A program made the position numbers and the translations under genes. This document shows positions 41,501-58,802 of a DNA stretch of 64,000 bases, piece after piece. The notes below the pieces were generated by a model, which made no database searches, had not been told where the DNA came from, and saw only the letters and a list, made by a program, of their open reading frames with translations. Position 1 is the first letter of the stretch; every line of letters starts with the position of its first letter. Source of the stretch: a virus; the IMG/VR virus record IMGVR_UViG_3300047564_003843, positions 96,705-160,704 of that record; one strand, given 5' to 3'.

Positions 41501-44500
41501 TTAGTCCTTTTTAGATTCAGTTGACTCTTTCGATTCAAGCACTGCAGCAGCGGCTAGGGCACGCTCCCGCATTGAGGCAACTACAGAGTCATCTACTGCA
41601 GCTGCTCCCCACTTCTCTGGGATTAGATTCTCTCGCTTTAGAGCACGAGCACGCTTCATGATGTGCTTGCGAACAAGACCACGCTTACCAGCCTTTGCAC
41701 GACCATAAGCTTGAATTGCGTTCTTCAAATCACCTGGGTTGCGGATTGGGAACGAACCATCTGGCAAAGCCTTACCCTCTTCTGCAAGCTTCTTTCGCTC
41801 ACGGCGAGTAATAACAGCCATTTCTGCTTCAGGGTTGTCGTCAAACATCTGAAGCATGTACTCTGAAGCAGCATCCTCTTCTGCTTTAATGCTTGCCACA
41901 CGGGAAGAAAGCTCTGCCATCTTCTCGGAGAGAGCTGACGCCTGAGACTGCTTGTGAATGTTTTCTAGTGCGTCAATTTTTGAATTTATTTCAGCAATTG
42001 GGTCGTACTTCATTTGAGCAAGAACGTTCGCACCTGCTGCAACCAAAGCCATTACCTGACCTGATGCAACACGAGCACGAGCAATTGGGAATCCTGGAAC
42101 GTTTACTTGGCAAACAGCAACCAACTCAAGGTGTCCCTTGATTGGTCGCCAGTCACCTGATGGAGCTGATGCACGAGCGGCTCTGATTTGCTCGGGGGTT
42201 GTGCCAGGACGTAGTGCGCCTGAAACCCAGATTCCGTAAGCATCTTCACCTGCGTGCACGTCTGCGAATGCTGATGCAGTGTCGTCATAGTGACGTACTG
42301 CTTCTTCAGCAGAAGCTTCTAGACCAGCGTGACCGCCAGCCAAAGTTAGTTGACCAACTGGAACATCCTTACCTTCAGCGGTACGAATTACACCAGTGTG
42401 GAAATATGAATACTTAGAGCGGCTACGTGGAGGACGAGTTCCAAATGCCATTCCGATGTGGTCTACATGCCAAGCAGCAATGTGACCGAATACGCGACCC
42501 TCATCTGTGATGGTGAGTGGAGTCGCTTTATCAAGTTTCTGATTCTCAAACCATTCTGCAGGAGGTTCTACAGGGATAGCACCAGCAACCATGCCGCAAG
42601 CAACAAGTGCTGAAGCATCAAGCGGGTTCACCCCATCTACATAAATACCATCTGGAACTGCCACGGCATCCTCCTCTAACTCGTTGTCATCATCAACGAT
42701 TTGGATATAACACTCTTGAAACGCTGGTTTTGGCACAATCGTGACTGCCATAATCCGAGCATTCTTGATTACTATTCTACCCGCCTCTATCTTCTCTGAG
42801 TCCTCTGAAGCCTCTTCTTCATCAGCTTCAAACATATCCATGTCAGCGGAGACTCCACGGATAAACCCATGACGAACTAGCCTTTCGGCTTCTTTTCCAT
42901 ACTCACCTGTATCGAAAACACCAACGGCATTTCCAATTCCATCTTCGACACGCTCCATGTGGGTAATTTGACCTACAACCACGGAGCCGTCATGTCCTTG
43001 ACCTGTCTTAATCTGCCAAAGTAGCGGCAAAGGTAGGTCACGCATAACTATTACACCTTTATCAAAGATGCGACCATCGCCAGATTCTTTGCCCTCAGGG
43101 ATAACCAAAGGAATCACAAACTTTGCACCATGCTCTGTTGGCTTCGCACCTTCTCGCCCAGCAAACTTGGCTTTTGCGGCTTCAGCACGGGCATTCAAAG
43201 TGAAAGTATCAATAATTTGCTCTTCAGAACGAAGTGCTTCAATACTTGACACTAAAGACTTCTTTTTCATACCTGGATTGCGCTTATCTCCTGGCCACAT
43301 ACCAGTCATCTCTTTATGACGAAGAGCGCAGTAGCCTTTCGAGCGAGGGCCAAGATATTTAGATAGGTAGCGGTCGCAGCGGGTCCAGTCTCCTGGAGAG
43401 TTCCAGCGAATTTTTAATCCACCCTTACCAACTGTCCAGTAGCGTCGTAATTTCTCAGCATTACCGCGGTTCCTGTCAGCACCACCTGCTGCAGTAATTG
43501 CATTAAGGCTTAGTGCCATTCCAACGTTAAAACTTAGAGAAGCAACAATTCCGCCATCAATTTGTGAAACAACGTCTGCTAATTGCTCGTTGCTCAAAAC
43601 AATTGTTGGTGGTGGAGTTGGGCTCTTAAGGTCAGCCATAATCCCTTCGTCGCGCTCCCACTTACGATTACGGCGCTTGAAAGTTGATGGTTGATTTGTG
43701 TCAATTCCAGCAGGAACTACAGCAACTAATTCCATGACTGCAGCAGGGTCATCCTCGGCGACAATTGCAATGTACATAGGAGCAACGTCTGTTTTTTCAG
43801 GGGTAATCTCATAGTTAGGCTTTTTACCCTCAGCTGAAGAAATAATTGACATCTCAAGGTCTGGGTCAAACTTCTTCATGTAATCTTTTGCGCTGACCTT
43901 TTTTACATCCTTAGCAGATTTTTTATCTTCTACCTTTGGTCCAAGATCACCATAAGTACGACTTGGTCTATACCAGCCGTCTCGGTGGTAAGCAGTTTCT
44001 GGGCTTGTAGTGTTTTTGTTTTTCTTATCTAGCCAGTCACGCAAGAGTGGGTTGTTGTAAACATTTTCTGTTGTAGCAGGATTCCAACCTGGCTTTGGAG
44101 TTCCATCTGGATTAAATGACCCTGTGTAGTACTTACCCAAAACGCTGTTGATATCAATGTTTGTGTTTACTGGAGTTGTTCCAGCAGAACTTGGGCTTGG
44201 GTTAGTTGCAGAAACAGGTTGACCTGTGTACTCAGGAGTAAGTCTTTGGTCTGAAACCCAAGTAGTCCAGTCATTCATCATTACTTGCAAACTGTCTGGG
44301 TTTAGTGGAGGAAGACGACCAGGAAGGTTTGCAATTGGGCTATCAATTGGAGCACGAGGCTCACCAAGAATGCCAGATGTGTCTAGCTCGAAGTCAACAA
44401 AACCTTGATTTGAAATTGGCTTGTAATCTTCCGCCAACTGAGTCTGATTTGCAGGAACTGCAACAACTTGTCCACTTGGGAACTCAACATTTGCTTCCTG

Positions 44501-45697
44501 AGTTTGAGCATTAATGGAAAGAATTTTTCCTGTGTACTTAGGATCATTTCCAACAACAACTGTGCTTCCAGCTTTAGCAAATTTTCCTAGCTGGTCGCGA
44601 ACTTGACCCTTTGCCTTCTCGGAGCGCTCTTCAGGAGTGTAGTTGCCATCTTGGTCTGTAGGAGCACCTACAGCAATGAGGCCATCATCCCACTCATCAA
44701 CCTCATAGACGTCGTCTTCTGATAGCTGGTCTAAGAAATTCCAATCAATTTCAGGAATTGCTTTCTCAATTAAGTGTGATTCATCAAAATCAATCATCTG
44801 CACAGAAACTGGACTGAAAGGACTGTTGTCTAGCATTGCAGAAATTTTTACTGCAGATTCACGGTCCACAGGGGTGTGAATTTTTTGCACTTGGTCGTAA
44901 GGGTCGTCAAGTGACTTGTCGTAGGTAATAAAGTCGTGGTCTATATGACCAAGGTCTTCCCAGCTACCGTCATCCCAAACGGTGCAGTAACCTTCCATAT
45001 CTACTTTGTATAGACGGTCAATACCTGATCCATCTAAACGAATACGAATGTAGAAATCGGGTTCGTAATCTGACGGAGTAAATGCGGTGTAGTCAATTCT
45101 TTGTACAGGCATAAACTCATCAATTGATGCAACCACTGAGTTATCTGCACGCTTCTTGTTATCGCGTTCGACAATTGCAGATGCCCAGCGCTTAGCAGCA
45201 TCTCCACCCCAAAGTGCCCATGCGATGCGACCATTACTTGGGTAGTTTTGTTGACCTGGCTTGTAGCCCTTGCCTTTTTTGTCCACTTCGTGGCGTGGAA
45301 AATATTTTGCGATATGACGAATCTTTTGGATACCAATCTGACCACCCTGCGCTAGAGTGCGTGCAGTATTCAGGCCAACAGGTGTGCCACCACGTTTTTC
45401 CTCGCGTCTCCAAGCAAGACCTCTCTTAGCCTCAGCAATAACAGCATCAGGAATTGTGTACATGTTACTGCTATCGCCATTACTTAAAACTTTAATATCT
45501 AAGTCAGTTACAGCTGCGCTCGCTAGCTCTAAAGAAGGAGCTGATGGACTTCCAGCCGAGGTGCTCCACTCTGCAGATGCAAGTAAAACAGCTGTCTTGT
45601 CTACCTGAACAACTGTATTGGTTGACTCATCAACAATAGCTGCCAACTCTTCATTGGAGAAGAGAACATAACTGTCAGTTCTGCCTAGATATTTCAT
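41501..45697 (-). CDS. Multi-domain capsid maturation protease
   Basis: A 1,398-residue protein. About 100-175: GIQKIRHIAKYFPRHEVDKKG and RIAWALWGGDAAKRWA, a helical phage-head module. About 375-400: a KOW-like strand set. About 760-815: RCDRYLSKYLGPRSKGYCALRH. About 856-1015: an S78-like prohead protease region (GDGRIFDKGVIVMRDLPLPLLW, GQITHMERVEDG, RGVSADMDMFE). About 1046-1240: the actinophage protease domain (TPLTITDEGRVFGHIAAW, VGQLTLAGGHAGLEAS, APSGDWRPIKGHLELVA). About 1302-1375: a DUF6582-like tail (KLAEEGKALPDGSFPIRNPG). It should cut the capsid delta domain. Far longer than single-domain relatives. Confidence 0.85.
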   Translation of the reverse strand: MKYLGRTDSYVLFSNEELAAIVDESTNTVVQVDKTAVLLASAEWSTSAGSPSAPSLELASAAVTDLDIKVLSNGDSSNMYTIPDAVIAEAKRGLAWRREEKRGGTPVGLNTARTLAQGGQIGIQKIRHIAKYFPRHEVDKKGKGYKPGQQNYPSNGRIAWALWGGDAAKRWASAIVERDNKKRADNSVVASIDEFMPVQRIDYTAFTPSDYEPDFYIRIRLDGSGIDRLYKVDMEGYCTVWDDGSWEDLGHIDHDFITYDKSLDDPYDQVQKIHTPVDRESAVKISAMLDNSPFSPVSVQMIDFDESHLIEKAIPEIDWNFLDQLSEDDVYEVDEWDDGLIAVGAPTDQDGNYTPEERSEKAKGQVRDQLGKFAKAGSTVVVGNDPKYTGKILSINAQTQEANVEFPSGQVVAVPANQTQLAEDYKPISNQGFVDFELDTSGILGEPRAPIDSPIANLPGRLPPLNPDSLQVMMNDWTTWVSDQRLTPEYTGQPVSATNPSPSSAGTTPVNTNIDINSVLGKYYTGSFNPDGTPKPGWNPATTENVYNNPLLRDWLDKKNKNTTSPETAYHRDGWYRPSRTYGDLGPKVEDKKSAKDVKKVSAKDYMKKFDPDLEMSIISSAEGKKPNYEITPEKTDVAPMYIAIVAEDDPAAVMELVAVVPAGIDTNQPSTFKRRNRKWERDEGIMADLKSPTPPPTIVLSNEQLADVVSQIDGGIVASLSFNVGMALSLNAITAAGGADRNRGNAEKLRRYWTVGKGGLKIRWNSPGDWTRCDRYLSKYLGPRSKGYCALRHKEMTGMWPGDKRNPGMKKKSLVSSIEALRSEEQIIDTFTLNARAEAAKAKFAGREGAKPTEHGAKFVIPLVIPEGKESGDGRIFDKGVIVMRDLPLPLLWQIKTGQGHDGSVVVGQITHMERVEDGIGNAVGVFDTGEYGKEAERLVRHGFIRGVSADMDMFEADEEEASEDSEKIEAGRIVIKNARIMAVTIVPKPAFQECYIQIVDDDNELEEDAVAVPDGIYVDGVNPLDASALVACGMVAGAIPVEPPAEWFENQKLDKATPLTITDEGRVFGHIAAWHVDHIGMAFGTRPPRSRSKYSYFHTGVIRTAEGKDVPVGQLTLAGGHAGLEASAEEAVRHYDDTASAFADVHAGEDAYGIWVSGALRPGTTPEQIRAARASAPSGDWRPIKGHLELVAVCQVNVPGFPIARARVASGQVMALVAAGANVLAQMKYDPIAEINSKIDALENIHKQSQASALSEKMAELSSRVASIKAEEDAASEYMLQMFDDNPEAEMAVITRRERKKLAEEGKALPDGSFPIRNPGDLKNAIQAYGRAKAGKRGLVRKHIMKRARALKRENLIPEKWGAAAVDDSVVASMRERALAAAAVLESKESTESKKD

Positions 45698-45699
45698 GA

Positions 45700-45963
45700 T
45701 TATTCCTCTATCACGTATTCTGCTAGGTCCGATTCAGTTAGAGTGTTGGTGTCCCATTTGTCGACTAGCTCACGGGACTTTGTAGCATCTAGTTCAAAAA
45801 CAACTAGCTCTTCAAATTGACCGTCAGTTTCTTCGTAATTAGGAACCCACTTTGAACCTTCGCGGCGGAAATCACCTAGACCTTCTACAAGGTAGGTAAA
45901 GTACTTAATTTCTCTAGTTTTAGGGTCGAGCAAAACCTCTAGAGTTTGAATTCCGTTACTCAT
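45700..45963 (-). CDS. Hypothetical protein (87 residues)
   Basis: Not recognised. Start set at ATG 45963 because it overlaps the upstream stop as ATGAGTAA; an alternative start at 46005 lies inside the upstream gene. It has a beta-rich N-terminal part (LEVLLDPKTREIKYFTYLVEG) and an acidic helical C-terminus (ATKSRELVDKWDTNTLTESD). It sits 2 bases ahead of the capsid protease gene. Possibly a small virion or assembly factor. Confidence 0.6.
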   Translation of the reverse strand: MSNGIQTLEVLLDPKTREIKYFTYLVEGLGDFRREGSKWVPNYEETDGQFEELVVFELDATKSRELVDKWDTNTLTESDLAEYVIEE

Positions 45964-46273
45964 CGGCTTCTGTCTCCTCTTCCTGCTCGTTCCTTGCGAT
46001 TTCATCTAACTCTTCCGCAGAGTAGGGGCGAACTATGTATCTGTTTTCGTATGCCTCAAACTCAATTGTACGCGCCTCATTATTAATGATTAGCTCATTT
46101 TCAGGCACAAAAAACATCTTGTCGTCTACAAGAAGACCGCTTTGGTCTACTTCATCGCCATCGTATGTTTTATAGAGGACTGATTGATAAGGGAGTTTAT
46201 ATGGCTCTGGCTGGGTAAGTCGCTCCAACATGCCTGGAGTGTCGAAAATTATCTTATCTTCTACAAAAGACAT
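45956..46273 (-). CDS. Hypothetical protein (105 residues)
   Basis: Not recognised. A beta-rich protein (YQSVLYKTYDGDEV, MFFVPENELIINNEARTIEFE) with an acidic C-terminal helix ending EEETEADE. It begins 2 bases after the giant multi-domain gene and overlaps the next gene by 8 bases, so it is co-translated with its neighbours in the head operon. Confidence 0.6.
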   Translation of the reverse strand: MSFVEDKIIFDTPGMLERLTQPEPYKLPYQSVLYKTYDGDEVDQSGLLVDDKMFFVPENELIINNEARTIEFEAYENRYIVRPYSAEELDEIARNEQEEETEADE

Positions 46274-46275
46274 GA

Positions 46276-49200
46276 TTAGCTGTCCTCCTTCAGAATGTCA
46301 ACGACATTTACTCCACTAACAATTTCATTATTTCCCTGGGTCAACTTTTCAATAAGCTTTTTTCTCACCGCTGGGCTCATGTTCACCACTGCAAGGTCAG
46401 CCCAAGATAGGTTCTTCTTAAACATAATCTGTGAAGCGTTATTCTTCATGTTATCCATTACGTCGAAGTTTTCCCCCTTAAGTTGCCCATACTGGTCTCC
46501 GCCCGTCGAGTAGTACCCTAATTTGCGGAAAAGCTTGGCAGCATCAAAATTCCATGTTGGACTCCCGCTGTTAGAACCATTTGATTTGCTGGAGTGTGAC
46601 CCGTAGGTGAAAACATAGTTCCCACCGTTAGCACGCAAGTCTTCGCTGGAGGACATACCTCCCATGTTTAGACCGTTGTCCCATCTCTGGCCTGTTGCCA
46701 AAATTCCACCTCGAAGAATCATTTTGTACAAAGCTTCTGCCTGACCATCTGAATCGGATGGAAAATCTTTCCCAGTAGTTTTGTGGTAGAAATATTTAAT
46801 TCCAGTAAAATCAGAAATCTTTTTTCCAACACTTTCTGGAAGTAGGTACTCGACTGTTCCAGTTGTGTCGAGCTTTACTTCGACATCATCTGCAGTTACG
46901 CCCCACTCTTGCTCGATCTGCTGTAGCTTCTGTTCACGTAGAATACCCTTGTAGTTTTTCTTACCCGTGGTGTGTTTTCCAAGTAGCCAAATAAGTTTGT
47001 TCTCTACAACACCTTTCACATCCTCTGGGCTTGCTGGTTTTACAGATTGAACACCGAAAACAGACATAGCATCAGCAATATCTTTTTCAGTAGCGTCTGC
47101 AGGAAGAAGTAGTTCTACGCGGTTGTGTAAACCAACTGTGTAGTTGCTGTATGAATAGTGTTTTGTAAAATCAACTTCACTATCATCGATATCTTTAGTG
47201 GCACGAATGAAGTTAAAAACACCTTTTCCTGCTTTACCTGTAATAGTCGTACCTTTTTCATATTTATCTACGGTACGACGCTTCGAGTCTTCACCGCCAG
47301 TCTTGAAAAACTTTCCTTGCTTAAGAAGACCGCTTTCGGGGTCTGTTTCCCACATTGTCATCTGAATAGCATCTGACTTTGTTGCTTCAGGATTATTAGA
47401 CAAAGCGGCAGCTACACCATTTCCTGCCCACGGGGTGAGTTTAAAAGTAACGCGAATATTTTCTTTATTGCCTTTTACTTTTACCTTTTGAACTTTAACT
47501 TCTAAGTCTTCAATTTCATCGGCGTCAACCAAAGCAGATACGCCATTAGTTGCAACTACTGCATTACCTTCTTTTACTTGAGATACAGCGGAAGCTAGTG
47601 AGGGTACAGCATCAGAAGATGAGCTGCTCCAATCTGCTGGTTTGTTTTCAGCGGGTGCTTGCTCAAATCCACCACCTTCAACCTCGAACTCTGCTTTAAG
47701 AGCCTTCTCCTGTGCTTCGATTTCGGCTTGCTTCTTTTTCTTAAGAAGTTCTTTTTCGTAAGCTTCAGCTTTATCCTTAGCTACTTGAAGAGCTTTTTTT
47801 AGATAAGAAGGGTCAACATCAATGTCAAGTTCTTTTGCCTGCTCGATGGTTAGGAACTTTTCACGGCTCCATACTTTGTCGTTTGGCAAAGTCTTGCTTT
47901 CACCTGCGAGCGGTCCATCAAAATATGAAATCTCAACGGTGTTATCTGATGGATTCAAGTTAGTGATTACACCGTGGCTAGCAAGGTCTTGGTCTCCAGC
48001 AGCTGGACTTGCGTTAGATGCAATCAAACCAGGAAACATATTCTTAGACTCTGGGTCTTTAAGGAACATGCCAGCAGGCTTAAATACATTCTTGTAGTCA
48101 GATTGACTCTGCGCACCGAAATATGTGTAATGCTCGACAGAGTTTTTTTCTTGAGCTTTCTTCAAAACATCTTTGAGAGTTTTTGCTCCGCTAATTGATT
48201 GTCCAGTGAAGTACGGGCTAGAACTTTCTCCTGTAGGTGCAGAAGAAGCTTCTGGTGTTGCTGGGACTTCTGCTGGTGCAGTTGTAGGAGTGGCAGGGGT
48301 TGCTGAATCAGGAGTTGAGTCAGTTTTTGGGGTTGGGTCGCCCCACTTCCACTCGCTATCGATTGGAGTAACGCTTAGAGAGCGAATTTTATTCTTTTCG
48401 CCATCTTCATACACAACGTTTAGGTAGTCGGTGTACACATACTTTCCGACCTTCCAATACAAACGCTTCTTTTTAATAACGGCAGTTTGACCAAATTTAG
48501 AGTGAGAAGGGTTGACAATTTTAACAGTCATACCTTCCTCAAGAACAGTTCCATCAGCAGCAATGTGAGCTTCTTTTTTAGTAGGGACTGATTCCTCGGA
48601 AGTCGGTAGTAGAGATTTGTCCGTCTCGGGTTTGGTCTTGCTCTTTAGATATTTAGGTTTGCTATTAGCATTGTAAATCTGGTCTGCAATAGAGTTCTTA
48701 AGAGCCTCACTTGAGTGGTTCTTCTTTGATAGGAAGTAAACCTTACTTGTGCCGTTTGCAAAAGTAATTCGGTGATATACCTCGAAGCTGTTGCTCTCGT
48801 TTCTGCGAACCACAACGTCGTAGCGGTCCTCTCCATGCATTACAGAATGGACAACAATGTGTCCATTTTCAAGAACACTGCCGTTGTAGTCTTCCTTTAC
48901 TGACTTCCAAATAAGTTCTGGGTCAGTAAGAGATGGATCAGACATAACCTTTTCAGCCTGTTCAACCGTAAGTGGGGTTGAAGCAAGCTCTGGGTCTTCT
49001 GGAGTAAGGTCTGTAATGTCTGCAGCTAGTTTTTCTTCAGCAGTTTCTAACTCTTCTGGTGCATCAACCGAAGAGAGTAAAGAATCAACTAGGTCTGGAT
49101 TCTGTGAACCTTCTTTTAGACCTTCAAGAGTTTCTTTTAGCTCATCGGTGGTGTTGGCTTTACCAAACACACCATCAACAACATCTGACAAGTCATCTAA

Positions 49201-52200
49201 AACTTTTTGCTTTTCTGCAGCAGGAAGTTCAGTTGGTTTTTCAACTGGTGTTCCTGGTGTTTCTAAGATTTCTGCTTCTGGTGCTGGTTTTGTTACAGAA
49301 CTTTCTGGAACGTTTGTTCCATCACCTTCTGCATCTTCCATCTTTCCAATGGTGAATGCCTTGATGACACCTGTGTTGTCTACAGTAATAACGTTGACGT
49401 TTCCGTTTTTGCCTTCTTTGATTTCCTGTGGCTTTACTAAACGGTCTTTTCCGTTATAGCTAAATAAAATCATGTCGCCGTTAGCAATTGCATCTTCAAT
49501 TTGAGCCTGCATGTCATCGGCAGTTGAAAGCTTACGAACTTTCTGCGTAGTTGAGACAGCTTCAGGTGCGTCTGCTGCAACTTCTTCAACACCAAGTTTT
49601 TGCATAAGGTTTGTACGACGTGCCTTTAGAAGGCTCTTAAGCATTTCTGCGGTCTCAGGGTCTTCAGGGAACGCTGCATCAACCAGTTCGTCAATCTTTT
49701 CTGGAGTGACGGCAGCAACCTTCTTACCAGATTCAGCGAGTTCGTCTGGAGTCATACCCGAGAAAATATCGGCAGCTTGTGGATTCGTATCAGAATCAAG
49801 CATGCTGTCAAGTTCAGTTACTTCTTCTCCAAAGTTTTCTTTGTTTTTACCCTGTGCACGGAATAGAAGTGAACCACCTGCATCAACACGGGTGACATTT
49901 CCTTCGCCGTCGGTAAGCATGTTGTCATACTCAAGACCTACTGCATCGTAGTTAGCAAGCCATGCATCAACAGCGAAATCTGCTTGAGCATTCTTTTTCA
50001 CTGTTTCATCATTCTTCTTGCTAGCAAGATCAGCTTTTGAACCGTCAATAACTGGAGAAACTAAAACAGTTTTTCCACTCTTGTCTACACCTAGATAAGC
50101 ACGACCGAACTTAACACCTGCAGCTTCGTATAATGCACCGCCAAGAACTTCATTCGCAGCGTGCTTGTCAGACTTTGGCTTCTTTACGTAGTACTGCTGA
50201 CCAGTTTGTGGGTCAGTGTAGAAAGCACCTTGGTTAGAACCACCTTGTCCACCTGACTTGACCCACTTGCTGGTGTCGAATGTTGTTGAAACATCTTCAG
50301 CAAATACGGTTTCAGTGGTAGTTGGCTTACCAGAGGTAGGAGCATCAAGATTTACAGAGTCAATAATTCCTGGGAATGAGTCAGCAAAGTCTGAGTGAAG
50401 TTTTCCTTCATCTGCCATCTTGGTAATTTGGTCAGCGGTGAACCAACCAACTGCAGTGTTCTCTCCATCCTTGCTGGAAAGGTCTTTGAATTGGTTTGGT
50501 CCTACTTCATAAACATCTGTCTCGTAGCCCCACTCTGCCCCAACCTTGTTAATGTCGGTGTAGATAGGTGTGAGGTTAGTGAGGTCACCACCAACTTCTT
50601 CCATAAACTCTTCTTTGGAAGTTGCTTGTGGAGTCTTCGCCATAAGTTGGTCTTTGTGAGCACCACCTGGGATGCCCCACTTGCCACCACCTTGGGATAG
50701 GCTTGAAGAACGCTTTGCTAAGAAGTACTCGTACTCTCCATCTGCATTCTTGCGACGTACCAAAGCACCAGCGGCACCATACTTACCCCAGAAGCGCTTG
50801 CCATCTGTGGTGAAGAAGTAGCCTTCTCCAGTCTCTTGATCATTTCCGCCGCCAAGTGGTGCAAAGAATGGAGTTTGTGGAGGTGTTAGCTCACCACTCT
50901 TTAGTTTCTGTACATCCTCAGACTTAATGTTTTCGGCATAGTAAACACCGTCGGTGCCTTGAGAAATCTTGTAACCCTCCCAAGTACCAGCGGACTCCTC
51001 CTTCTTTGGGGCCTCATCGGTTTCAAGTTGTGGTTGTTCTAGCTCTGGCTCTGGTTCTACTTCAGTAGTAGCAGAGTTACGTCTCCACAAACCGTACTTC
51101 GCATACTTAACCCAGCTGTTAATTTTTCCGTTCTCGGCGCTGTAAACGTTACCGTTTGCAAGCAGACGTCGATTAACAAAAACTTTTTTATCGTTTTCTG
51201 GGTCTGGCTCAATTGAGAGGACTTCCCAGTATCCGCCGTTTGGTGCAGCAATAAAGTCTCCTGCTTTCCACTCTTCAACAGGAACTGCACCTAGGTAGGT
51301 AACGTTTTCTGGGTCATTTACATAGTTGTTGGAAACAAATCCACCAAGGACAGACTCGATGTCTGGCTCTGTTGTAACGACTTCAGAGATAGTTGCAGAA
51401 GTTAGGTCATCTTTTGTTGGAAGCTCAGCTGGGACCTTCTCGATAAGAGAGTCAACAGTCTCCCCTTCGCCGCCCTTAGCAACAGTCTCAGCCATAATCT
51501 GGTCTGTTTCAACCTTAGACTTCTTAGCCTTACTAGCAAGGTAGTCTGCTACAGCTGCATCGTACTTAGCCTTTGCTGCATCAATGTCGAAATCTTCTAA
51601 AACTAGAGGATTCTTAGTTAACGCAGTTTCATCAAGCATTGCGTTGAGAATGTCTGGAAGAACTGAAACATCAGTTGCAGCGTCGTGCCAGTTGAGGTCT
51701 CCCTTCTCAGGGAAATACTTTGCGTAAACTTCAGCAAGCTTGTTTCCATCTCCAAGGAACTTTAACTTCTTTGCAAGTGGAAGTGTGTCAATAGTTCCAC
51801 CAATATTTACAGTCTCACCGATTTCTTCCATGTGGCGCTGAAGAATTGGGATATCAAAGTCACTGATGTTATGGCCCATGAGAATTACAGGCTCGTCACC
51901 AAGGTATTCCTTAATCTTGGCAAAAGCTTCACTAATAGATTGCTGCTTAGCGAGCCACTCATCAGAGATTGGGTTTCCTTCAGTGTCCTTGAGAATACCT
52001 TCTGAGTCAGCCTTCTTGTAGAAATCGCCTAGAGGTACTTCAGGATTCATCCAAAGAACTAGAGGCTCTTCTACAAGCTCGCCATTCTTAGTCTTTGTAA
52101 CTGCAACTTGAATTGGCTTTTGCTCGTTAAATACTTTTGTCTTGTTTGCAGCAGTTTCAAAATCAAAGCTGACAATAACTTCATTATTAAGAAGTTCCTT

Positions 52201-55200
52201 GAGCTTTGCTGGGTCTCCATTAGCTTCAGCAAGAATCGACTTGAGCTTCTCGCCGCCACCAAAGATTGGGTAAACAGGGCGAGATGGCTTTGGAGGAACT
52301 GCAGCTGTGGTTGTTTCTGGGTCAATTGGAGGTGTGAAAGCTGCACCAGACTCTGCTTTAGCTTTATCAAAAGCAGCCTTCTTAGAGTTGTAATCTGGGT
52401 CTGCATACTTTGGACGCTCTAGAGCTGGCTTGTCGCCAGGTGAAGGCAAGTCCTGAGTTCCACGCATAACTTTGATAAGAGTTCCTGCGTTCCAAGCCTT
52501 CTCCTGAGAGACGTGTCCTGGATAGAATCCCTTTAGTTTTGCCTGACCTGTTTCTGGGTCAATGCCGAGGTTCTCTTCAACAACAAAAAATTCGTAGTTT
52601 GGAGCGTCTTTCTCTTTCTTGAAAGTTATGTCTCCAGCTTTTACTTCAGCTGCAGGAACTTCAACAATGGCAACAGGGTTAGAAACAGGAACAGAAGAAA
52701 CAGTGTCTTCTTTACTGTGCCACTTGTCTAGACCTTCTGGCTCTTGCCACTTAGCTTTAGCCTCTGCCATCTGAGCGTTGTATTGGTCTAGAGCATCGAG
52801 GAACTTGCTGCGAGCTTCTCCATCTTTTGGAACAAAAACACCAAGGACCTTGTCCTTGTAAATCTTGCCTTCAGGGTCAAACTCTTTTGGCTTTGGCTTA
52901 GACAGCTCTGGCAAGTCTCCCTTTGCAGGAGGCTCGACGTTACGGAAAACAGAAATGTTTGTGTCTGCGTTCCACAATTTAGTCTTTTGTGTGACGTGAC
53001 CTGGATAGTAACCCTCAACCCAAACTGAACCCGGTTTTAGTGCCTCAGACTCTTCATCAGAAAATACGTTTTCAATCGTAAAGTTGTCACCAACAGTTAT
53101 ATCTCCTGGTTTGAGATCTCCTGCTTTTGATTCAACGATTGCAGGTCCGCTTGGTTCTCCAATATTGGCAACGGTTTCGGGTCCCGCTTCATCCGTCGCA
53201 ACTTGTTGCGGGGCTTCGGCAGGCGCTTCTTGCTCAGGGGTTGGTGTTCCTTCGGATGTTTCAGGTTCTTCTCCTTCCAGAGCGTCACTGATTTCTACAG
53301 GGGTTAGGTCTTCTTGACCAGCGATACCTTCTTCGTAAATGTCATTAAGAAGAGAATTAGTGTCTTCACCTTGTAGTTGAAGCGCATCGCGAATCGCTTC
53401 TGCTGGAACGTACCCATTGTAATCTTCGCCAGTATCAGTCTCTTGAGAAAGAATTCCATAACCATCGCCGCCTGGTTCCACAGCGCGACGCAACTCCTTC
53501 TTAAGTGCTTCAGTGTCGTAGTTATTTGCAATATCGATTGGGTCGAAATTAAATCCTTCTGGAGCATCCTCTGGAAGTGTGAATAGGTCTTTGTTAAAAG
53601 GCTCTGCGTCTAGGAAGCCGTAACCTTCTGGCAAATCAAAATCATCTTTATTTTTTGGAAGATGCTTGGCGTAATCGCCAGTTTTGGCATACTCGTCTTT
53701 TTCTGCATCAGACAATCCATCAAGCAGTGCAGGCAATTTTGCTGGGTCTGCATCAGCAGATGGCATTGGAGACTCTGGTAAGTCTTTGCCTAATTCATCT
53801 ACAACATCTTGAGGAACTTCAGGTGTAGCTTCTTCTTTCTTACCTGAAAGCTTGTTTTTAATCTTGTCGTAAATTTTTGCAAGAATGCTTTTAGAGTCTT
53901 CGCCCTTTTCATCAAGAGCATCTCTTAGAGCCTCAGCAGGTACAGACTCATCTCCTGCTTCAAATGGAAGCTGAGAAGTTCCGTCTCCATCAACAGCTTT
54001 TTCCAAAGCATCAGTAATTTCTGGAGTATCAAACTTTTGTGCGATTTCAGCAGGGTCATCTGTGTAGTCAGCAGACTCTACATCTGCATCGGCTCCCTGT
54101 GGTGTGTATGGAGCATCGTCCATCTTGTATGCGCCAGCAGGAACTTCAGATGCTTCAGTTCCAGGCTTAATTTTTGCAGAGGTTCCATCTGCATTACGAA
54201 CAACCTCACCAGTCTCAGCGTCAACAACTGTGCCATCTGGAAGAAGCATGTGGTCTTTGGTCGGGTCGAGTGGGAATGTTCCACCACTCTTCTCATAATC
54301 CTTAAGAGCCTTTTGATACTTCTTCTGGTCTTTCTTCAAATTCTTCTTTGAAGATTTAGGAACTAACTTGCCTTCAAGACCTTCAGCAGGTGTTGCCTCT
54401 GGGGCTTGTGGCTCAGAAGCTTCTTGACCTTCATCAAGCATCTTTGATGGGTCTGGTAGTTCGTTCTTCTCAAACTTTGGTTCATCCTGTGCAATGTAGT
54501 CCTGAACATCAGACCAACGCTGTACAGCAGCAAACGGGAACTTCTCGTTCTCTCCACGGCGAGATACAAAGTAGACAGGAAGATTTGGGTCTAGTGAGCC
54601 ATTCTTTCCAAGTCCTTCTGTAACAACGTTCTGACCTTCTCCTTCGCGCTGTTGTGCTGCTTCGAATTGGTCTTTAGCAAATGCGTTAGGGCTAGAAACT
54701 TTAATAACGTCGTATGCATCATCTGTGTACTTGGTTCCAAGGTCAATCTTGGTTCCGTAGTACTTCTGGTCGTCTTCGCTTGGAGACCAGCTTTCATCCT
54801 TGCTAAATCCTGCAGGAGCATCGAGCTTAATTAAATCTTTTTCATCAACAACTGGGTCACCAGTTTTTACCTTTGCAGGAGTCTTGCTATATCCATCTGG
54901 ATTTTGAGCAGACTTAAGAACTGCCTTGACACCTTCTGCAGACTTGGCTGGGACACGAACAAGGTCACCATTTGGCAACTCAATGTCAAAAGTATCGCTG
55001 TTCTCATCGGCAGCAACAGTCTTACCAGTTAGAGATTGAACAACACCATTTGCTTTACGAATCAAAGCACGAAGTGAACCGCCCATGAACGCAAAGCGAC
55101 CCTTACGGTCACGACGCTGTAGCAAAGCACGAGCGCGACGTGCAGCAGATGAGTTTCCATCACCTAGAGCTGCTAGAAGTGCGTAAGAAGGGACTGTGCC

Positions 55201-55689
55201 CTGTGGCAGTGACTGCAAGCGAGCGATTGAATACTCGTACTCAGCGGTAGCTGGGTGTGCAGTTAGAGCAGAAGCTAGAACAGAGCGAATCTCATCGTCT
55301 TGAATCTTTGGGTCGTCAACAATCCAGCGAGCGCGGTGGCGCATAAGGTCAGCAGTGCTCAACTCATGCTTGCGAGTAGAACGTGGGTGGGAGATTGGAA
55401 GTAGGTCTGTGTTATCTACAGTTCCAAAGAAAACTTTGTTGTATTGAGCAAGTTGGATGTAGTTGTTTAACTCTTTGATGGAGCGAATACGACGAAGAGA
55501 GTAAGACTCACCTTCATACTTTGTCAAAGAACGGTTTAGAACAGCAAGAGCAGCTCTACGAGTAACAATGCGAGAACCAGAAAACTTAGAGTTTGCTTCT
55601 TTAACTAGCTCAAGACCAGCATCAATAATTCGCTGGTTCTGCGCTTCATAAGAAATAACTGGTACTTGTATTTTGCTCTTGGCAGCCAT
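46276..55689 (-). CDS. Giant multi-domain (polyvalent-type) protein: exonuclease, Nudix, kinase-like, WYL-like and ART-like regions
   Basis: 3,137 residues. About 1-210: helical phage-head start with DLLPISHPRSTRK and DRKGRFAFMGG. About 400-900: acidic linkers with a repeated EALRDAL...GED unit. About 856, 1011 and 1473: three AGD(I/F) modules. About 1175-1345: DEDDh exonuclease (VSFDFETA, GHNISDFDIPIL, WHDAATDV). About 1650-1710: Nudix-like (WGIPGGAHK, KEEFMEEVGGDL). About 1805-1990: kinase-like (SGGQGGSNQGAFY, YYVKKPKS, DAWLANYDAVGLEYDNML, RVDAGGSLLFRAQG). About 2063-2115: WYL-like. About 2380-2450: KOW-like. About 2965-3060: ART-like (YHKTT...RGGILATG...GGNYVFTY). It lies two genes downstream of portal with a 1-base overlap. 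Domain names rest on motifs only; packaging in the virion is inferred. Confidence 0.8.
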   Translation of the reverse strand: MAAKSKIQVPVISYEAQNQRIIDAGLELVKEANSKFSGSRIVTRRAALAVLNRSLTKYEGESYSLRRIRSIKELNNYIQLAQYNKVFFGTVDNTDLLPISHPRSTRKHELSTADLMRHRARWIVDDPKIQDDEIRSVLASALTAHPATAEYEYSIARLQSLPQGTVPSYALLAALGDGNSSAARRARALLQRRDRKGRFAFMGGSLRALIRKANGVVQSLTGKTVAADENSDTFDIELPNGDLVRVPAKSAEGVKAVLKSAQNPDGYSKTPAKVKTGDPVVDEKDLIKLDAPAGFSKDESWSPSEDDQKYYGTKIDLGTKYTDDAYDVIKVSSPNAFAKDQFEAAQQREGEGQNVVTEGLGKNGSLDPNLPVYFVSRRGENEKFPFAAVQRWSDVQDYIAQDEPKFEKNELPDPSKMLDEGQEASEPQAPEATPAEGLEGKLVPKSSKKNLKKDQKKYQKALKDYEKSGGTFPLDPTKDHMLLPDGTVVDAETGEVVRNADGTSAKIKPGTEASEVPAGAYKMDDAPYTPQGADADVESADYTDDPAEIAQKFDTPEITDALEKAVDGDGTSQLPFEAGDESVPAEALRDALDEKGEDSKSILAKIYDKIKNKLSGKKEEATPEVPQDVVDELGKDLPESPMPSADADPAKLPALLDGLSDAEKDEYAKTGDYAKHLPKNKDDFDLPEGYGFLDAEPFNKDLFTLPEDAPEGFNFDPIDIANNYDTEALKKELRRAVEPGGDGYGILSQETDTGEDYNGYVPAEAIRDALQLQGEDTNSLLNDIYEEGIAGQEDLTPVEISDALEGEEPETSEGTPTPEQEAPAEAPQQVATDEAGPETVANIGEPSGPAIVESKAGDLKPGDITVGDNFTIENVFSDEESEALKPGSVWVEGYYPGHVTQKTKLWNADTNISVFRNVEPPAKGDLPELSKPKPKEFDPEGKIYKDKVLGVFVPKDGEARSKFLDALDQYNAQMAEAKAKWQEPEGLDKWHSKEDTVSSVPVSNPVAIVEVPAAEVKAGDITFKKEKDAPNYEFFVVEENLGIDPETGQAKLKGFYPGHVSQEKAWNAGTLIKVMRGTQDLPSPGDKPALERPKYADPDYNSKKAAFDKAKAESGAAFTPPIDPETTTAAVPPKPSRPVYPIFGGGEKLKSILAEANGDPAKLKELLNNEVIVSFDFETAANKTKVFNEQKPIQVAVTKTKNGELVEEPLVLWMNPEVPLGDFYKKADSEGILKDTEGNPISDEWLAKQQSISEAFAKIKEYLGDEPVILMGHNISDFDIPILQRHMEEIGETVNIGGTIDTLPLAKKLKFLGDGNKLAEVYAKYFPEKGDLNWHDAATDVSVLPDILNAMLDETALTKNPLVLEDFDIDAAKAKYDAAVADYLASKAKKSKVETDQIMAETVAKGGEGETVDSLIEKVPAELPTKDDLTSATISEVVTTEPDIESVLGGFVSNNYVNDPENVTYLGAVPVEEWKAGDFIAAPNGGYWEVLSIEPDPENDKKVFVNRRLLANGNVYSAENGKINSWVKYAKYGLWRRNSATTEVEPEPELEQPQLETDEAPKKEESAGTWEGYKISQGTDGVYYAENIKSEDVQKLKSGELTPPQTPFFAPLGGGNDQETGEGYFFTTDGKRFWGKYGAAGALVRRKNADGEYEYFLAKRSSSLSQGGGKWGIPGGAHKDQLMAKTPQATSKEEFMEEVGGDLTNLTPIYTDINKVGAEWGYETDVYEVGPNQFKDLSSKDGENTAVGWFTADQITKMADEGKLHSDFADSFPGIIDSVNLDAPTSGKPTTTETVFAEDVSTTFDTSKWVKSGGQGGSNQGAFYTDPQTGQQYYVKKPKSDKHAANEVLGGALYEAAGVKFGRAYLGVDKSGKTVLVSPVIDGSKADLASKKNDETVKKNAQADFAVDAWLANYDAVGLEYDNMLTDGEGNVTRVDAGGSLLFRAQGKNKENFGEEVTELDSMLDSDTNPQAADIFSGMTPDELAESGKKVAAVTPEKIDELVDAAFPEDPETAEMLKSLLKARRTNLMQKLGVEEVAADAPEAVSTTQKVRKLSTADDMQAQIEDAIANGDMILFSYNGKDRLVKPQEIKEGKNGNVNVITVDNTGVIKAFTIGKMEDAEGDGTNVPESSVTKPAPEAEILETPGTPVEKPTELPAAEKQKVLDDLSDVVDGVFGKANTTDELKETLEGLKEGSQNPDLVDSLLSSVDAPEELETAEEKLAADITDLTPEDPELASTPLTVEQAEKVMSDPSLTDPELIWKSVKEDYNGSVLENGHIVVHSVMHGEDRYDVVVRRNESNSFEVYHRITFANGTSKVYFLSKKNHSSEALKNSIADQIYNANSKPKYLKSKTKPETDKSLLPTSEESVPTKKEAHIAADGTVLEEGMTVKIVNPSHSKFGQTAVIKKKRLYWKVGKYVYTDYLNVVYEDGEKNKIRSLSVTPIDSEWKWGDPTPKTDSTPDSATPATPTTAPAEVPATPEASSAPTGESSSPYFTGQSISGAKTLKDVLKKAQEKNSVEHYTYFGAQSQSDYKNVFKPAGMFLKDPESKNMFPGLIASNASPAAGDQDLASHGVITNLNPSDNTVEISYFDGPLAGESKTLPNDKVWSREKFLTIEQAKELDIDVDPSYLKKALQVAKDKAEAYEKELLKKKKQAEIEAQEKALKAEFEVEGGGFEQAPAENKPADWSSSSSDAVPSLASAVSQVKEGNAVVATNGVSALVDADEIEDLEVKVQKVKVKGNKENIRVTFKLTPWAGNGVAAALSNNPEATKSDAIQMTMWETDPESGLLKQGKFFKTGGEDSKRRTVDKYEKGTTITGKAGKGVFNFIRATKDIDDSEVDFTKHYSYSNYTVGLHNRVELLLPADATEKDIADAMSVFGVQSVKPASPEDVKGVVENKLIWLLGKHTTGKKNYKGILREQKLQQIEQEWGVTADDVEVKLDTTGTVEYLLPESVGKKISDFTGIKYFYHKTTGKDFPSDSDGQAEALYKMILRGGILATGQRWDNGLNMGGMSSSEDLRANGGNYVFTYGSHSSKSNGSNSGSPTWNFDAAKLFRKLGYYSTGGDQYGQLKGENFDVMDNMKNNASQIMFKKNLSWADLAVVNMSPAVRKKLIEKLTQGNNEIVSGVNVVDILKEDS

Positions 55690-57032
55690 TACTTGTTCTT
55701 CCTTTTCGGCAGAAGGTCTGAATCCATGCTGTCGTATGTCATTACTGCAAGAACTGCTGCTCGCTTAAATGGGTTTTCATTGTTGCGAACTGCACGAAGC
55801 CAAGCAGCACGGAAAGCTGGCTCTGCTTCGTAGCCAAGTCCAGAATATTCTGTCATGGCAAAAATTGCGTACTCTGGAGTTTCGTACTCTTCTTCAGACT
55901 TCAACTCCACGGTTAGGTCTGCTTCTGCCTCTGCAGATGCAAGAAGAAGTTCTAGGTCTTCTTCATCACGAACTGGAACCTGCGAAACATCTACAACGCC
56001 TTCTGGAATTACAGCAAAACGGCACTTACCATCATCTTCAATTGGAAGAGAAATAATTCGACATACATCTCCTGCTTGGTAGAAGACGCAGTTGGAGCAC
56101 TTAACGCCGATATCTTTTACTTCGTTCTCAGAAGCAGGTGTGTAGCCAGCCCAAACTCCATCACCGTCTTGGTCAAACTTGCCATATTTCTCTGTGATTG
56201 AAACAAGAGCGTCTGCTAGTGCCTGCTCTTCAGGAATCAACGCAGAAGCTGTAATTGCTTTTGAAGATGCGTTCTTTTTTGAAGACTTAGGGTGTGATGC
56301 TGGTAGAAGGTCATTATCTGCTTTGTACGCAGAGTTCTTTGGCTTACCAGACTTAAGTAGACGAAGGAAAGCGTTAACGCGACCCATAGCCCACTGGTTA
56401 CGAGTCATCCCAGGTCGATGAGATACTGAATAGGCTCCTGCACCACGGCGGTAGACCGCCTTGAGCGTTGAGACGGAAGTCTTGCGACCCTTAGGTGCCT
56501 TCTCGTTGTGCTCCTGTGCCTTCTTTCGAAGAGAAGCTTCAATCGCAGGAGTAAAAGTGATTTTCTTACCGCCTGCAGCTGAGCCCTTTGTATTTTTGTC
56601 AGAGCCTTTGACGCGATCTTTTTTAGGGGCAGGGGTTTGTGCAATCTTCTTTTTAGCAGCAGCTGTCACAGGACCACCTGCAACCCAAGCGCGACATGTA
56701 CGTGCAGATGCACATTTGAAATCAAACGCTTCGCAATATCCTAGTTCACCAGCTGCATCAATTGAATCGAACTCATCTGAGTTGTCGGTCAAACCGCTTT
56801 CAATGCATGAAAGCATCTCTGGTGTTTTAATAAAGACAGCGCAATTGCCACAAGTCTGCTTTTTAGCAGTTTCTGCATCTACGCCCCACTCGCTTCCAAG
56901 TGCAGTCCAATACTCTTCGTTTGGCTCTGCAGGATTGAGTGGTCCATACATTGCAGTGTCAATCGCGTTCTTGCGATTTTTTAGATTCAAAGCAACATCT
57001 TGAGTTGCTGGAGGGCAAGTCTCTTCAGCCAT
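55689..57032 (-). CDS. Head-module protein with two Cys clusters and a DUF5824-like region
   Basis: A 447-residue protein right after portal. Cys61, Cys64, Cys76, Cys100 and Cys107 form one cluster (CGNCAVF...) and a second set lies around residues 311-343 (KCSNCVFY...CRI...KCRF); the spacing recalls HiPIP-like small iron-sulfur or zinc modules. Between them, LKAVYRRGAGAYSVSHRPGMTRNQWAMGRVNAFL is a motif common in phage head proteins, and DLLPASHPKSSKK matches a motif in the following giant protein. FDQDGDGVWAG is a calcium-loop-like motif. It shares one base with the giant gene and follows portal without a gap. Function unknown; likely a virion component. Confidence 0.7.
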   Translation of the reverse strand: MAEETCPPATQDVALNLKNRKNAIDTAMYGPLNPAEPNEEYWTALGSEWGVDAETAKKQTCGNCAVFIKTPEMLSCIESGLTDNSDEFDSIDAAGELGYCEAFDFKCASARTCRAWVAGGPVTAAAKKKIAQTPAPKKDRVKGSDKNTKGSAAGGKKITFTPAIEASLRKKAQEHNEKAPKGRKTSVSTLKAVYRRGAGAYSVSHRPGMTRNQWAMGRVNAFLRLLKSGKPKNSAYKADNDLLPASHPKSSKKNASSKAITASALIPEEQALADALVSITEKYGKFDQDGDGVWAGYTPASENEVKDIGVKCSNCVFYQAGDVCRIISLPIEDDGKCRFAVIPEGVVDVSQVPVRDEEDLELLLASAEAEADLTVELKSEEEYETPEYAIFAMTEYSGLGYEAEPAFRAAWLRAVRNNENPFKRAAVLAVMTYDSMDSDLLPKRKNK

Positions 57033-58802
57033 TTACTGCTGAGCCTCCTCAGTTGGTGCAGGTGTTGCTGGTTCCTCGGTTGGAGTCTCTGCTGGAGCTT
57101 CGCCAATTGCACCGTCAAGAAGAGTTTGCAACTCTGGTGACATTGGAGCAACAGAACTTTCTTGGCTTACTTGCTGAACTGCTTGCATCACATCTGGTGC
57201 AACAGCTTTAAGCATTGCCTCTGTAAGTTCTGGTGTGATTGCGCCACGCTCTTGTAGAAGTCGTAGAGCAACTTCTGTTGGAGTAGGAGCATCTTGGTCT
57301 GAGAAGCCGTGAGCACGACGCCATGTGTCAGCAGAAACTGCCATGCGGTCGTAACCTGCATCTGCATCTGCAGCACGGTCGTTACGTGTTGAGACTGCTG
57401 ATGGGTCGTACCAAACAACAATTCTATTTACTTCAGACTCGGTGAAACCATTTGCCATTAGATATGGGCGTAGGTAGACAACTGTAAGAGCGTCTGAGAT
57501 GAGAAGCATCAATGGTTCGATGTGTGCCTTGTACAGAGACTCGTCGATTTGCATCGCGTTGGAGTACTTAACATTTGCAAGACCTGTGACGATGTCCTTT
57601 GGAACATCAAGACCTTGAAGAATGCGCTCTAGTACACGGTCTGAACGCTCAGCAAGTGCTGGGTCGAAAGAACGCTCAAACTTAAATTGCTTGATGCGGT
57701 CACCAAGTTCTGCAGGACCGCGAATGATAAGAGGAACAACAGCGCTCGCAGATTCTTCATCACGAATCGGAGTTGTCATCGCATCGATGAGTTGCTCTTC
57801 AAATTCGTCTTCTGCTTCTTCTGCAGTAAAGCCCGCTCCCATTCCGTCTTCAGAATCGTATGGATAGTTAGGGTCTGCTTGTGCAGCAACAGAAAGTCCG
57901 TCTGGAAGATAAAGTGCTCCTGCGTTGAGGCGAGAGCGTGCAGTTGCACGGAATGTTCTGTTGAGGAGAAGTAGTTCTGCGCAAAGATCTAGAAGACCGC
58001 GTAGAGAAGAATCTGCTTCATCAGAGAAACGTGGATGTGAACGCCAGATACGTCCTACAAAGGAACCTTTATTAAGTTTGTTAACTCCCATTGATGCACC
58101 GCCACCTTGACCTGCACCCTGCTCACGGCGACCAATAACATTAAATCCACCACGTGCATCTGTTACAACTTCGTCAACGGAACGGACGTCCCAAGATTCA
58201 GGAATTCCTGAACCTGGACGAGCTGGCATTTGTACTAGATAACATTCACCAGCAACTGAAAGATTAAGAGCTGCATCTTTAAGAAGACCTGCTTGGCCTC
58301 CATATGCAGAGTTAAGACGGTCAAGAGCACGCTCTGCTGCTGATGCAAGACGTTGGTCAATTACTCGAGACTCGTGTACTGAAACTGGAGCCTGTGATGG
58401 GTCATCAATTGCAGCTGCGTATATACGAATACGTGAGACAACAGATGCAACAAGATTAAATGCGTATTTAATTTCACCAATTGCGTCGTAATACTCCCAA
58501 GCTTCGGCCTGCCATGCAGATGAGGATGCGCTACGACGTTGCTTAAACTGTTCGAACTCGCCTTTGTCATTTACTTTGACTTGAACTGCTGCTGCAGTCA
58601 TAGAACGAGGAGTGTTGTAAGAAAGCGGAGCTGGTGAGTTTGGTGAAGTGAAAACTGAAAGAATGCCAGAAGGCTGAGGAGCTACTGTTCTCTCAATAAT
58701 TTGAGTAGAGCGGTTAGTACGAGTACGGCGACGAGGACGTGGTTTCTTGGTTTCAGAAACAACTGGCTCTTGTACTGGCTCTTCTTTTTTGAATACCGCC
58801 AT
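57033..58802 (-). CDS. Portal protein
   Basis: A 589-residue portal that forms the 12-subunit packaging ring at one capsid vertex. After a basic, Pro-rich start (KKPRPRRRTRTNRS) the core has EAWEYYDAIGEIKYAFNLVASVVSRIRIYAAA, WDVRSVDEVVTDARGG, RIWRSHPRFSDEADSSLRGLLDLCAELLLL and ERILQGLDVPKDIVTGLANVKYSNAMQIDE, all typical of actinophage portals. The C-terminus is Glu/Pro/Thr-rich. It begins the head operon here, with ribosome site AAGGGTTAACA. No terminase gene lies upstream of it in this window. Confidence 0.93.
   Translation of the reverse strand: MAVFKKEEPVQEPVVSETKKPRPRRRTRTNRSTQIIERTVAPQPSGILSVFTSPNSPAPLSYNTPRSMTAAAVQVKVNDKGEFEQFKQRRSASSSAWQAEAWEYYDAIGEIKYAFNLVASVVSRIRIYAAAIDDPSQAPVSVHESRVIDQRLASAAERALDRLNSAYGGQAGLLKDAALNLSVAGECYLVQMPARPGSGIPESWDVRSVDEVVTDARGGFNVIGRREQGAGQGGGASMGVNKLNKGSFVGRIWRSHPRFSDEADSSLRGLLDLCAELLLLNRTFRATARSRLNAGALYLPDGLSVAAQADPNYPYDSEDGMGAGFTAEEAEDEFEEQLIDAMTTPIRDEESASAVVPLIIRGPAELGDRIKQFKFERSFDPALAERSDRVLERILQGLDVPKDIVTGLANVKYSNAMQIDESLYKAHIEPLMLLISDALTVVYLRPYLMANGFTESEVNRIVVWYDPSAVSTRNDRAADADAGYDRMAVSADTWRRAHGFSDQDAPTPTEVALRLLQERGAITPELTEAMLKAVAPDVMQAVQQVSQESSVAPMSPELQTLLDGAIGEAPAETPTEEPATPAPTEEAQQ

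What the first reader, a model, noticed from the sequence alone, without database searches (positions are those of the whole stretch)
46276..55689. 3,137-residue polyvalent-type protein in the phage head operon
Seen: one uninterrupted frame with motifs for a DEDDh exonuclease (FDFET, GHNISDFD, WHDAATD), a Nudix-like box, a kinase-like fold (Gly-rich loop, Lys, NYDAVGLEYDN, VDAGG), a WYL-like region, KOW-like barrels and an ART-like C-terminus. Known: polyvalent proteins of phages and conjugative elements string such domains together and are proposed to act against host defence on entry. Inference: its position between portal and capsid protease suggests it is packaged and injected to degrade nucleic acid, clear nucleotide signals and modify host targets. 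It may be a new domain combination.
Basis: partly seen in the sequence, partly recalled or inferred. Interest (0 to 1): 0.88.

Follow-up and report, generated by a model that had tools for sequence, protein, structure and literature searches.

The report
Giant multi-enzyme phage head-operon protein
A freshwater actinobacterial phage encodes, among its head genes, one 3,137-residue protein that strings together a nuclease, a nucleotide-cleaving enzyme and a kinase with intact active sites; it is probably carried in the virus particle as a multi-tool against the host, a new member of a known class whose tail end is swapped between phages together with two small neighbouring genes.

Summary
The ORF is real: minus strand, 46276-55689, 3,137 aa, uninterrupted, conserved in more than 20 environmental contigs, always between portal and prohead protease where the contig reaches. 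Three of the six proposed domains are confirmed with invariant catalytic residues: a DEDDh exonuclease, a Nudix domain and a kinase (AlphaFold/Foldseek: CtkA/HipA/PI4K-like). A WYL-like module is supported through relatives. KOW barrels are not established. The ART-like C-terminus is not confirmed: it has an H-Y-E/Q pattern (Q in this copy), but no sequence or PDB fold match to an ART. Relatives sharing its N-terminus carry ArdC-N and the MPTase-PolyVal peptidase, UvrD helicase, ADP-ribosyltransferase and WYL, so it belongs with the polyvalent proteins of Iyer et al. 2017. Residues 20-110 are homologous to the DUF5824 domain of the neighbouring head-operon protein, a candidate docking module. 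New points: the domain combination, a 6,094-aa relative, and hyperdivergence of the C-terminus plus two small downstream genes, exchanged as one block between close relatives (55-70% DNA identity inside about 90% flanks). That resembles a toxin cassette with cognate partners. Packaging and injection remain inferred; the only virion hint is a 'phage particle associated' note on a Yersinia phage protein with the same kinase domain.

The parts
46276..55689 (-). 3,137-aa polyvalent-type protein
   Evidence: relatives
55360..55632 (-). aa 20-110: N-terminal domain homologous to the DUF5824 domain of the upstream 447-aa head-operon protein (candidate prohead-docking module)
   Evidence: hhalign prob 96, E 2e-9; DUF5824 in the neighbour, 36 bits vs cut-off 25
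51520..52188 (-). aa 1168-1390: DEDDh (DnaQ/RNase_T) exonuclease, catalytic D1176 E1178 D1279 H1335 D1340
   Evidence: phrog_192 4e-17; PDB PolC exonuclease 1.4e-9; PADLOC DEDDh 1.4e-12; residues 29/29
50335..51012 (-). aa 1560-1785: Nudix domain; box GGAHKD...KEEFMEEVGG, carboxylates E1694 E1697 E1698; canonical Arg and first Glu not in place
   Evidence: PDB 6uuf RenU 3e-10; Pfam NUDIX 72.9 and 29.8 bits in relatives, cut-off 21.1
49660..50277 (-). aa 1805-2010: CtkA/HipA/PI4K-like kinase; K1836 E1847 D1915 N1923 D1936
   Evidence: AlphaFold pLDDT 84; Foldseek CtkA 1.5e-7, LepB, PI4K, HipT, prob 1.0; residues 31/31
49390..49617 (-). aa 2025-2100: WYL-like module (tandem copies in L012 and DSL-LC01)
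   Evidence: Pfam WYL 4.3e-6 in L012; PADLOC WYL 3e-15 in two relatives; window copy itself gives no hit
48415..48612 (-). aa 2360-2425: small module proposed as KOW-like; not established
   Evidence: SPT5 E 0.37 only
46825..47622 (-). aa 2690-2955: conserved C-terminal module of unknown fold, first half of the exchanged cassette
46279..46824 (-). aa 2956-3137: C-terminal candidate ART-like domain, H2969-Y3025-Q3087 (Glu in 20 of 23 sequences)
   Evidence: no ART by sequence or fold
45956..46273 (-). small acidic gene 1, hyperdivergent, co-exchanged with the C-terminus
45700..46005 (-). small acidic gene 2 (likely start 45963), hyperdivergent, co-exchanged with the C-terminus
55689..57032 (-). 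447-aa DUF5824 head-operon protein
57033..58802 (-). portal protein
   Evidence: phrog_776 3e-107
41501..45697 (-). prohead protease (Peptidase_S78) fusion, 1,398 aa
38490..40610 (-). major capsid protein, 706 aa
   Evidence: phrog_777 2e-83

Best explanation
It is a polyvalent effector made with the head proteins. Its N-terminal DUF5824-related region probably docks it in the prohead (inferred), and it probably enters the cell with the DNA (inferred). There, separate domains act on different targets: the DEDDh domain trims 3' ends of nucleic acids or signalling oligonucleotides, the Nudix domain cleaves nucleoside-diphosphate-linked metabolites or signals (for example ADP-ribose or NAD-type), the CtkA/HipA-like kinase phosphorylates host proteins, and the WYL-like module may sense a nucleotide ligand. 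The C-terminal H-Y-E/Q module acts as a variable effector, exchanged together with the two small downstream genes. Shown: the ORF, its slot, the three enzyme folds with intact active sites, modular shuffling, and the exchange block. Inferred: virion packaging, injection, substrates and the role of the C-terminus.
For: Conserved portal > DUF5824 protein > giant > small gene(s) > protease order. N-terminus homologous to the neighbouring head-operon protein. Exonuclease, Nudix and kinase catalytic residues invariant or nearly so in 26-31 distinct sequences and confirmed by independent matches. Relatives anchored by the same N-terminus carry ArdC-N and MPTase-PolyVal (L120), UvrD helicase, NUDIX, WYL and ADPrib_exo_Tox (L012), in different orders. 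The kinase domain sits just upstream of ADP-ribosyltransferases in unrelated phages, one noted 'phage particle associated protein'. Polyvalent proteins and Nudix/ART domains fused to head proteins are described and proposed to be injected (PMC5512222, PMC9503650).
Against: No virion proteomics for this lineage. The particle-associated note concerns a different protein that shares only the kinase domain, and the underlying paper was not found. Substrates unknown. The Nudix box lacks the canonical Arg. No MPTase-PolyVal was detected in the window protein itself, so how or whether it is processed is unknown.
Confidence: 0.75

Rival explanations
1. A late, non-packaged multi-enzyme that works in the producing cell (host takeover, superinfection exclusion or nucleotide recycling) and merely shares the head transcript.
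For: No direct virion evidence for this lineage; enzymes such as Nudix and DnaQ also serve in nucleotide metabolism (general knowledge).
Against: Fixed position between portal and protease across divergent phages; N-terminal domain shared with a head-operon protein; a protein with the same kinase domain is annotated particle-associated.
Confidence: 0.14
2. Mainly a structural or ejection protein of the head (scaffold-like, inner-core), whose enzyme-like domains are ancestral relics.
For: Head-operon position, large size, repeats and low-complexity linkers, homology of the N-terminus to a head-operon protein.
Against: All catalytic residues of exonuclease and kinase invariant in 29-31 sequences; strongest constraint in Nudix and kinase (dN/dS 0.035-0.041); domain content swaps while the slot stays.
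Confidence: 0.08
3. A refinement rather than an alternative of the best explanation: the C-terminal domain is a toxin of the H-Y-E ADP-ribosyltransferase type and the two small genes are its cognate immunity or loading partners.
For: Invariant H2969 and Y3025 and E in 20 of 23 sequences at 3087; C-terminus plus small genes form one exchanged block; small-gene divergence tracks the C-terminus more than the adjacent protease (Spearman 0.58 vs 0.28).
Against: No ART match by sequence, PDB fold or profile comparison; Gln at 3087 in the window copy; genes side by side can be exchanged together without a functional link; a small-gene-like region is fused to a DUF5824-type protein in L012 and DSL-LC01, which suggests a structural or loading role.
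Confidence: 0.3

Closest known systems
Polyvalent proteins of phages and conjugative elements (Iyer et al. 2017, PMC5512222)
   Same: Very large; several unrelated enzymatic domains in one chain; phage head gene context; relatives with the same N-terminus carry ArdC-N and MPTase-PolyVal.
   Different: This copy has no detected ArdC-N or MPTase-PolyVal; its kinase is CtkA/HipA-like rather than demonstrably the reduced kinase described there; it has a DEDDh domain not mentioned in the main text; its C-terminus is exchanged as a cassette, whereas that paper says the proteins it recovered did not follow the toxin-style layout.
Virion-associated Nudix/ART fusions of phages (PMC9503650)
   Same: Nudix domains in head-gene clusters or fused to MuF, portal or serine peptidase.
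   Different: Here the Nudix is one module of a 3,137-aa protein and not fused to MuF or portal.
Actinomycetia phage DSL-LC01 WJZ48510.1 (3,289 aa, hypothetical protein)
   Same: Same slot, homologous N-terminus, kinase, WYL-like and C-terminal modules.
   Different: No exonuclease or Nudix found; annotated only as hypothetical.
Kinase-ART proteins of Pseudomonas, Yersinia and other phages (e.g. fHe-Yen8-01 WOL24339.1)
   Same: Kinase domain about 40% identical; one noted as phage particle associated.
   Different: Carry a Pfam-recognised ADP-ribosyltransferase after the kinase; no shared N-terminus, exonuclease or Nudix.
Helicobacter pylori CtkA / HipA-type kinases
   Same: Kinase fold (Foldseek E 1.5e-7, prob 1.0).
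   Different: Not recognisable in PDB sequence searches; different context.

Membership tests
Polyvalent proteins (Iyer 2017) | Two or more domains with disparate biochemical activities in one chain | tested here: met
   Exonuclease, Nudix, kinase
Polyvalent proteins (Iyer 2017) | Encoded next to phage packaging/virion genes of a portal-terminase phage | tested here: met
Polyvalent proteins (Iyer 2017) | Domain architecture network shared with known polyvalent domains (ArdC-N, MPTase-PolyVal etc.) | tested here: met
   Met through N-terminally homologous relative L120 (ArdcN 1e-29, MPTase-PolyVal 6e-12), not in the window copy itself
Polyvalent proteins (Iyer 2017) | Carried in the virion and transferred with the DNA | not testable with these tools
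   Only indirect: note
DEDDh exonucleases (DnaQ/RNase_T) | D-E-D-D acidic residues and H-x4-D motif | tested here: met
   29 of 29 distinct sequences; RNase_T in 11 of 15 members
Nudix hydrolases | Family profile and metal-binding glutamates of GX5EX7REUXEEXGU | tested here: met
   Pfam in close relatives and PDB RenU; three Glu conserved, canonical Arg and first Glu absent or shifted
HipA/CtkA/PI3K-PI4K-like kinases | Kinase fold with Lys, Glu, catalytic Asp, Asn, DxG Asp | tested here: met
WYL domain | Profile match | tested here: inconclusive
   Above cut-off in relative L012 and by PADLOC in two relatives; no match for the window segment
KOW/SH3-like barrels | Profile match | tested here: not met
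ADP-ribosyltransferases (C-terminus) | Profile or fold match to an ART | tested here: not met
ADP-ribosyltransferases (C-terminus) | H-Y-E type residue pattern | tested here: inconclusive
   H and Y 23/23, E 20/23, Q in the window

The most novel reading that the evidence does not exclude
The family is a virion-borne, toxin-style polyvalent effector: a constant docking N-terminus and constant enzyme core, with a C-terminal effector module that is exchanged together with two small adjacent genes encoding its cognate partners (immunity or loading factors). Phages would thus diversify an injected weapon by cassette swapping, in the way bacterial polymorphic toxins do.
Probability: 0.3. Interest if true: 0.75.

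Novelty: new variant of a known kind. Interest (0 to 1): 0.58.

Why it matters
It adds to the polyvalent class a freshwater actinophage family of 3,000-6,000 residues with a conserved slot, a candidate docking domain and a natural recombination experiment that marks which part is under diversifying exchange. Cultured soil actinophages have their own giant proteins in the same slot (Microbacterium phage Pumpernickel gp82/gp84, Arthrobacter phage Talia1610 gp77, Gordonia phage Forza gp78/gp80), so packaging, injection and the role of each domain can be tested directly.

Tried and rejected
ART reading of the C-terminus: Pfam, NCBIfam, PADLOC, PDB sequence, Foldseek PDB and hhalign against phage ARTs all gave no ART; Foldseek against viral models gave only uncharacterised giant-virus proteins at the top (best 3e-3). 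KOW reading: only SPT5 at E 0.37. Artefact by chance or misassembly of the ORF: rejected by independent contigs. PDC-S48 defence-family hits turned out to be the exonuclease segment. Host link through GTDB genomes: no relatives with kinase or N-terminal queries. The genome search 'relatives' is not available for a virus record. No paper in the library mentions DUF5824 or fHe-Yen8-01. A genome or viral scan with the C-terminal 190 residues alone was not possible, its alignment having no conserved stretch long enough.

Full report
Observation. The ORF exists as described but on the minus strand: 46276-55689, 3,137 aa, no internal stop, and every quoted motif is present. It is flanked upstream by a 447-aa DUF5824 protein and the portal, and downstream by two small ORFs, a 1,398-aa protein with a Peptidase_S78/head-protease region, and the major capsid protein. 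The window is 96705-160704 of a 160,704-bp virus record.

Relatives. A scan of IMG/VR found full-length homologues (53-60% identity) and a 6,094-aa one (L012); further scans with single domains brought more records. Among annotated phage records the closest is Actinomycetia phage DSL-LC01, assembled from lake water; portal relatives are Microbacterium, Arthrobacter and Gordonia phages, which also have very large proteins next to the portal. In relatives the order portal, DUF5824 protein, giant, small gene(s), protease is preserved wherever the contig reaches.

Domains. (1) Exonuclease, aa 1168-1390: phrog_192 E 4e-17, PolC exonuclease in the PDB E 1.4e-9, PADLOC DEDDh E 1.4e-12, Pfam RNase_T in 11 of 15 members; D1176, E1178, D1279, H1335 and D1340 are invariant in 29 distinct sequences. 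(2) Nudix, aa 1560-1785: PDB RenU E 3e-10; Pfam NUDIX above cut-off in L012, L073 and L076; the most conserved part of the protein; E1694, E1697 and E1698 are kept, but the canonical Arg and first Glu are not in place. (3) Kinase, aa 1805-2010: AlphaFold model at mean pLDDT 84 whose best PDB matches are H. pylori CtkA (E 1.5e-7), LepB, PI4K and HipT; K1836, E1847, D1915, N1923 and D1936 are invariant in 31 sequences. The same domain, about 40% identical, precedes ADP-ribosyltransferases in unrelated phages, one of them noted as phage particle associated. (4) WYL-like module, aa 2025-2100: tandem in L012 and DSL-LC01; Pfam WYL in L012 and PADLOC WYL in two relatives; the window copy alone gives no hit. 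(5) KOW: not established. (6) C-terminus, aa 2690-3137: AlphaFold pLDDT 81, but no PDB match above noise and only uncharacterised giant-virus proteins at the top among viral models. H2969 and Y3025 are invariant and position 3087 is E in 20 and Q in 3 of 23 sequences, Q in the window. That fits an H-Y-[EQ] ART pattern known to me from general knowledge of the superfamily, but it is a lead, not a demonstration.

N-terminus. A profile of aa 1-275 matches the DUF5824 region of the upstream head-operon protein (prob 96, E 2e-9, aa 20-110). The slot, the homology to the neighbour and the constancy of this part across relatives that otherwise differ in content suggest a prohead-docking role (inference).

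Modularity. Relatives with the same N-terminus have different bodies: L120 has exonuclease, UvrD helicase, ArdC-N and MPTase-PolyVal; L012 has WYL repeats, kinase, exonuclease, UvrD helicase, Nudix and an ADP-ribosyltransferase, in a different order; DSL-LC01 lacks exonuclease and Nudix. ArdC-N and zincin-like peptidases are hallmark domains of the polyvalent proteins (PMC5512222), so membership in that class is well supported.

Hyperdivergence and cassette exchange. The record's other end holds a second version of the head module: portal 90%, 447-aa protein 84%, protease 90%, capsid N-part 94% identical, but the giant 53% and the two small genes 29-33%. Between L033 and L035/L037 DNA identity is about 0.9 through most of the giant, falls to 0.55-0.7 over the last 1.4 kb of the giant and the two small genes, and returns to 0.88-0.97 at the protease. 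Small-gene divergence tracks the C-terminus more than the protease (Spearman 0.58 vs 0.28; pairs are not independent, so this is descriptive). The window and L032, which share the Q variant, are each other's best match in both C-terminus and small genes among the pairs with the window. So the C-terminal domain and the small genes move as a block. Whether the small proteins are immunity, loading or structural partners is open; in L012 and DSL-LC01 a small-gene-like region is fused to a DUF5824-type protein, which favours a loading or structural role.

Selection. In L002/L003 the dN/dS is 0.10 overall, 0.035 in Nudix, 0.039 in kinase and 0.032 in the C-terminal domain: the protein is maintained, not decaying.

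Mechanism. Most likely an effector carried in the head and delivered with the DNA, whose enzyme domains act on host proteins, nucleotide signals and nucleic acids. Shown: ORF, slot, folds, catalytic residues, modularity, exchange block. Inferred: packaging, injection, substrates. PMC9503650 argues that Nudix and ART domains are frequently virion-packaged to counter NAD-derived signals, which is the closest precedent.

Novelty. A new variant of a known kind. The polyvalent concept and head-packaged Nudix/ART domains are published. The DEDDh + Nudix + CtkA-like-kinase combination, the DUF5824-related N-terminus and the C-terminal-plus-two-genes exchange are, as far as the held literature shows, undescribed; notably PMC5512222 states that the polyvalent proteins it recovered did not follow the toxin-style layout, which this family partly does.

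Noticed in passing
G000:C1:1-24000 versus window 39741-64000: The 160.7-kb record is longer than the apparent 136-kb genome unit (L001 contig 136,029 bp; two portals about 136.4 kb apart) and its two ends hold two different strains' versions of the head module; the start is about 100% identical to contig IMGVR_UViG_3300047510_001678 (L007). Probably a chimeric assembly of two co-occurring strains.
   Followed up: partly
window 45700-46273: Two small acidic genes after the giant are the most divergent genes of the head module (29-33% identity between flanks of 90%); fused into one ORF of about 200 aa in L002, L004, L007, L031.
   Followed up: yes
window 25437-27452, 27468-29795, 36468-37514: The same roughly 70-residue module (HGFxxGxxVxIxGVDxxFxGTYxI...) recurs in three different predicted structural proteins, several times in one of them (seen).
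   Followed up: no
L012 6608-24889: A 6,094-aa relative in the same slot, with WYL repeats, KTSC, kinase, exonuclease, UvrD helicase, Nudix, an ADP-ribosyltransferase and the C-terminal module.
   Followed up: partly
window 12856-13401: WhiB-like protein, typical of actinobacteria and their phages (by eye, from the translation); supports an actinobacterial host.
   Followed up: no
window 11361-12863: Protein resembling FAD-dependent tryptophan halogenases (by eye), next to a glycosyltransferase-like protein; a halogenase homologue is also reported in DSL-LC01 (PMC10611076).
   Followed up: no
L006, L010, L038, L121: The giant ORF is split in some contigs (frameshift or stop), which may be sequencing error or real decay.
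   Followed up: no
L022 17628-25757 (Arthrobacter phage Talia1610 gp77): A 2,709-aa protein in the same slot of cultured Arthrobacter phages carries a UvrD-type helicase and a weak match to the N-terminal module, a cultivable system for testing the family.
   Followed up: partly
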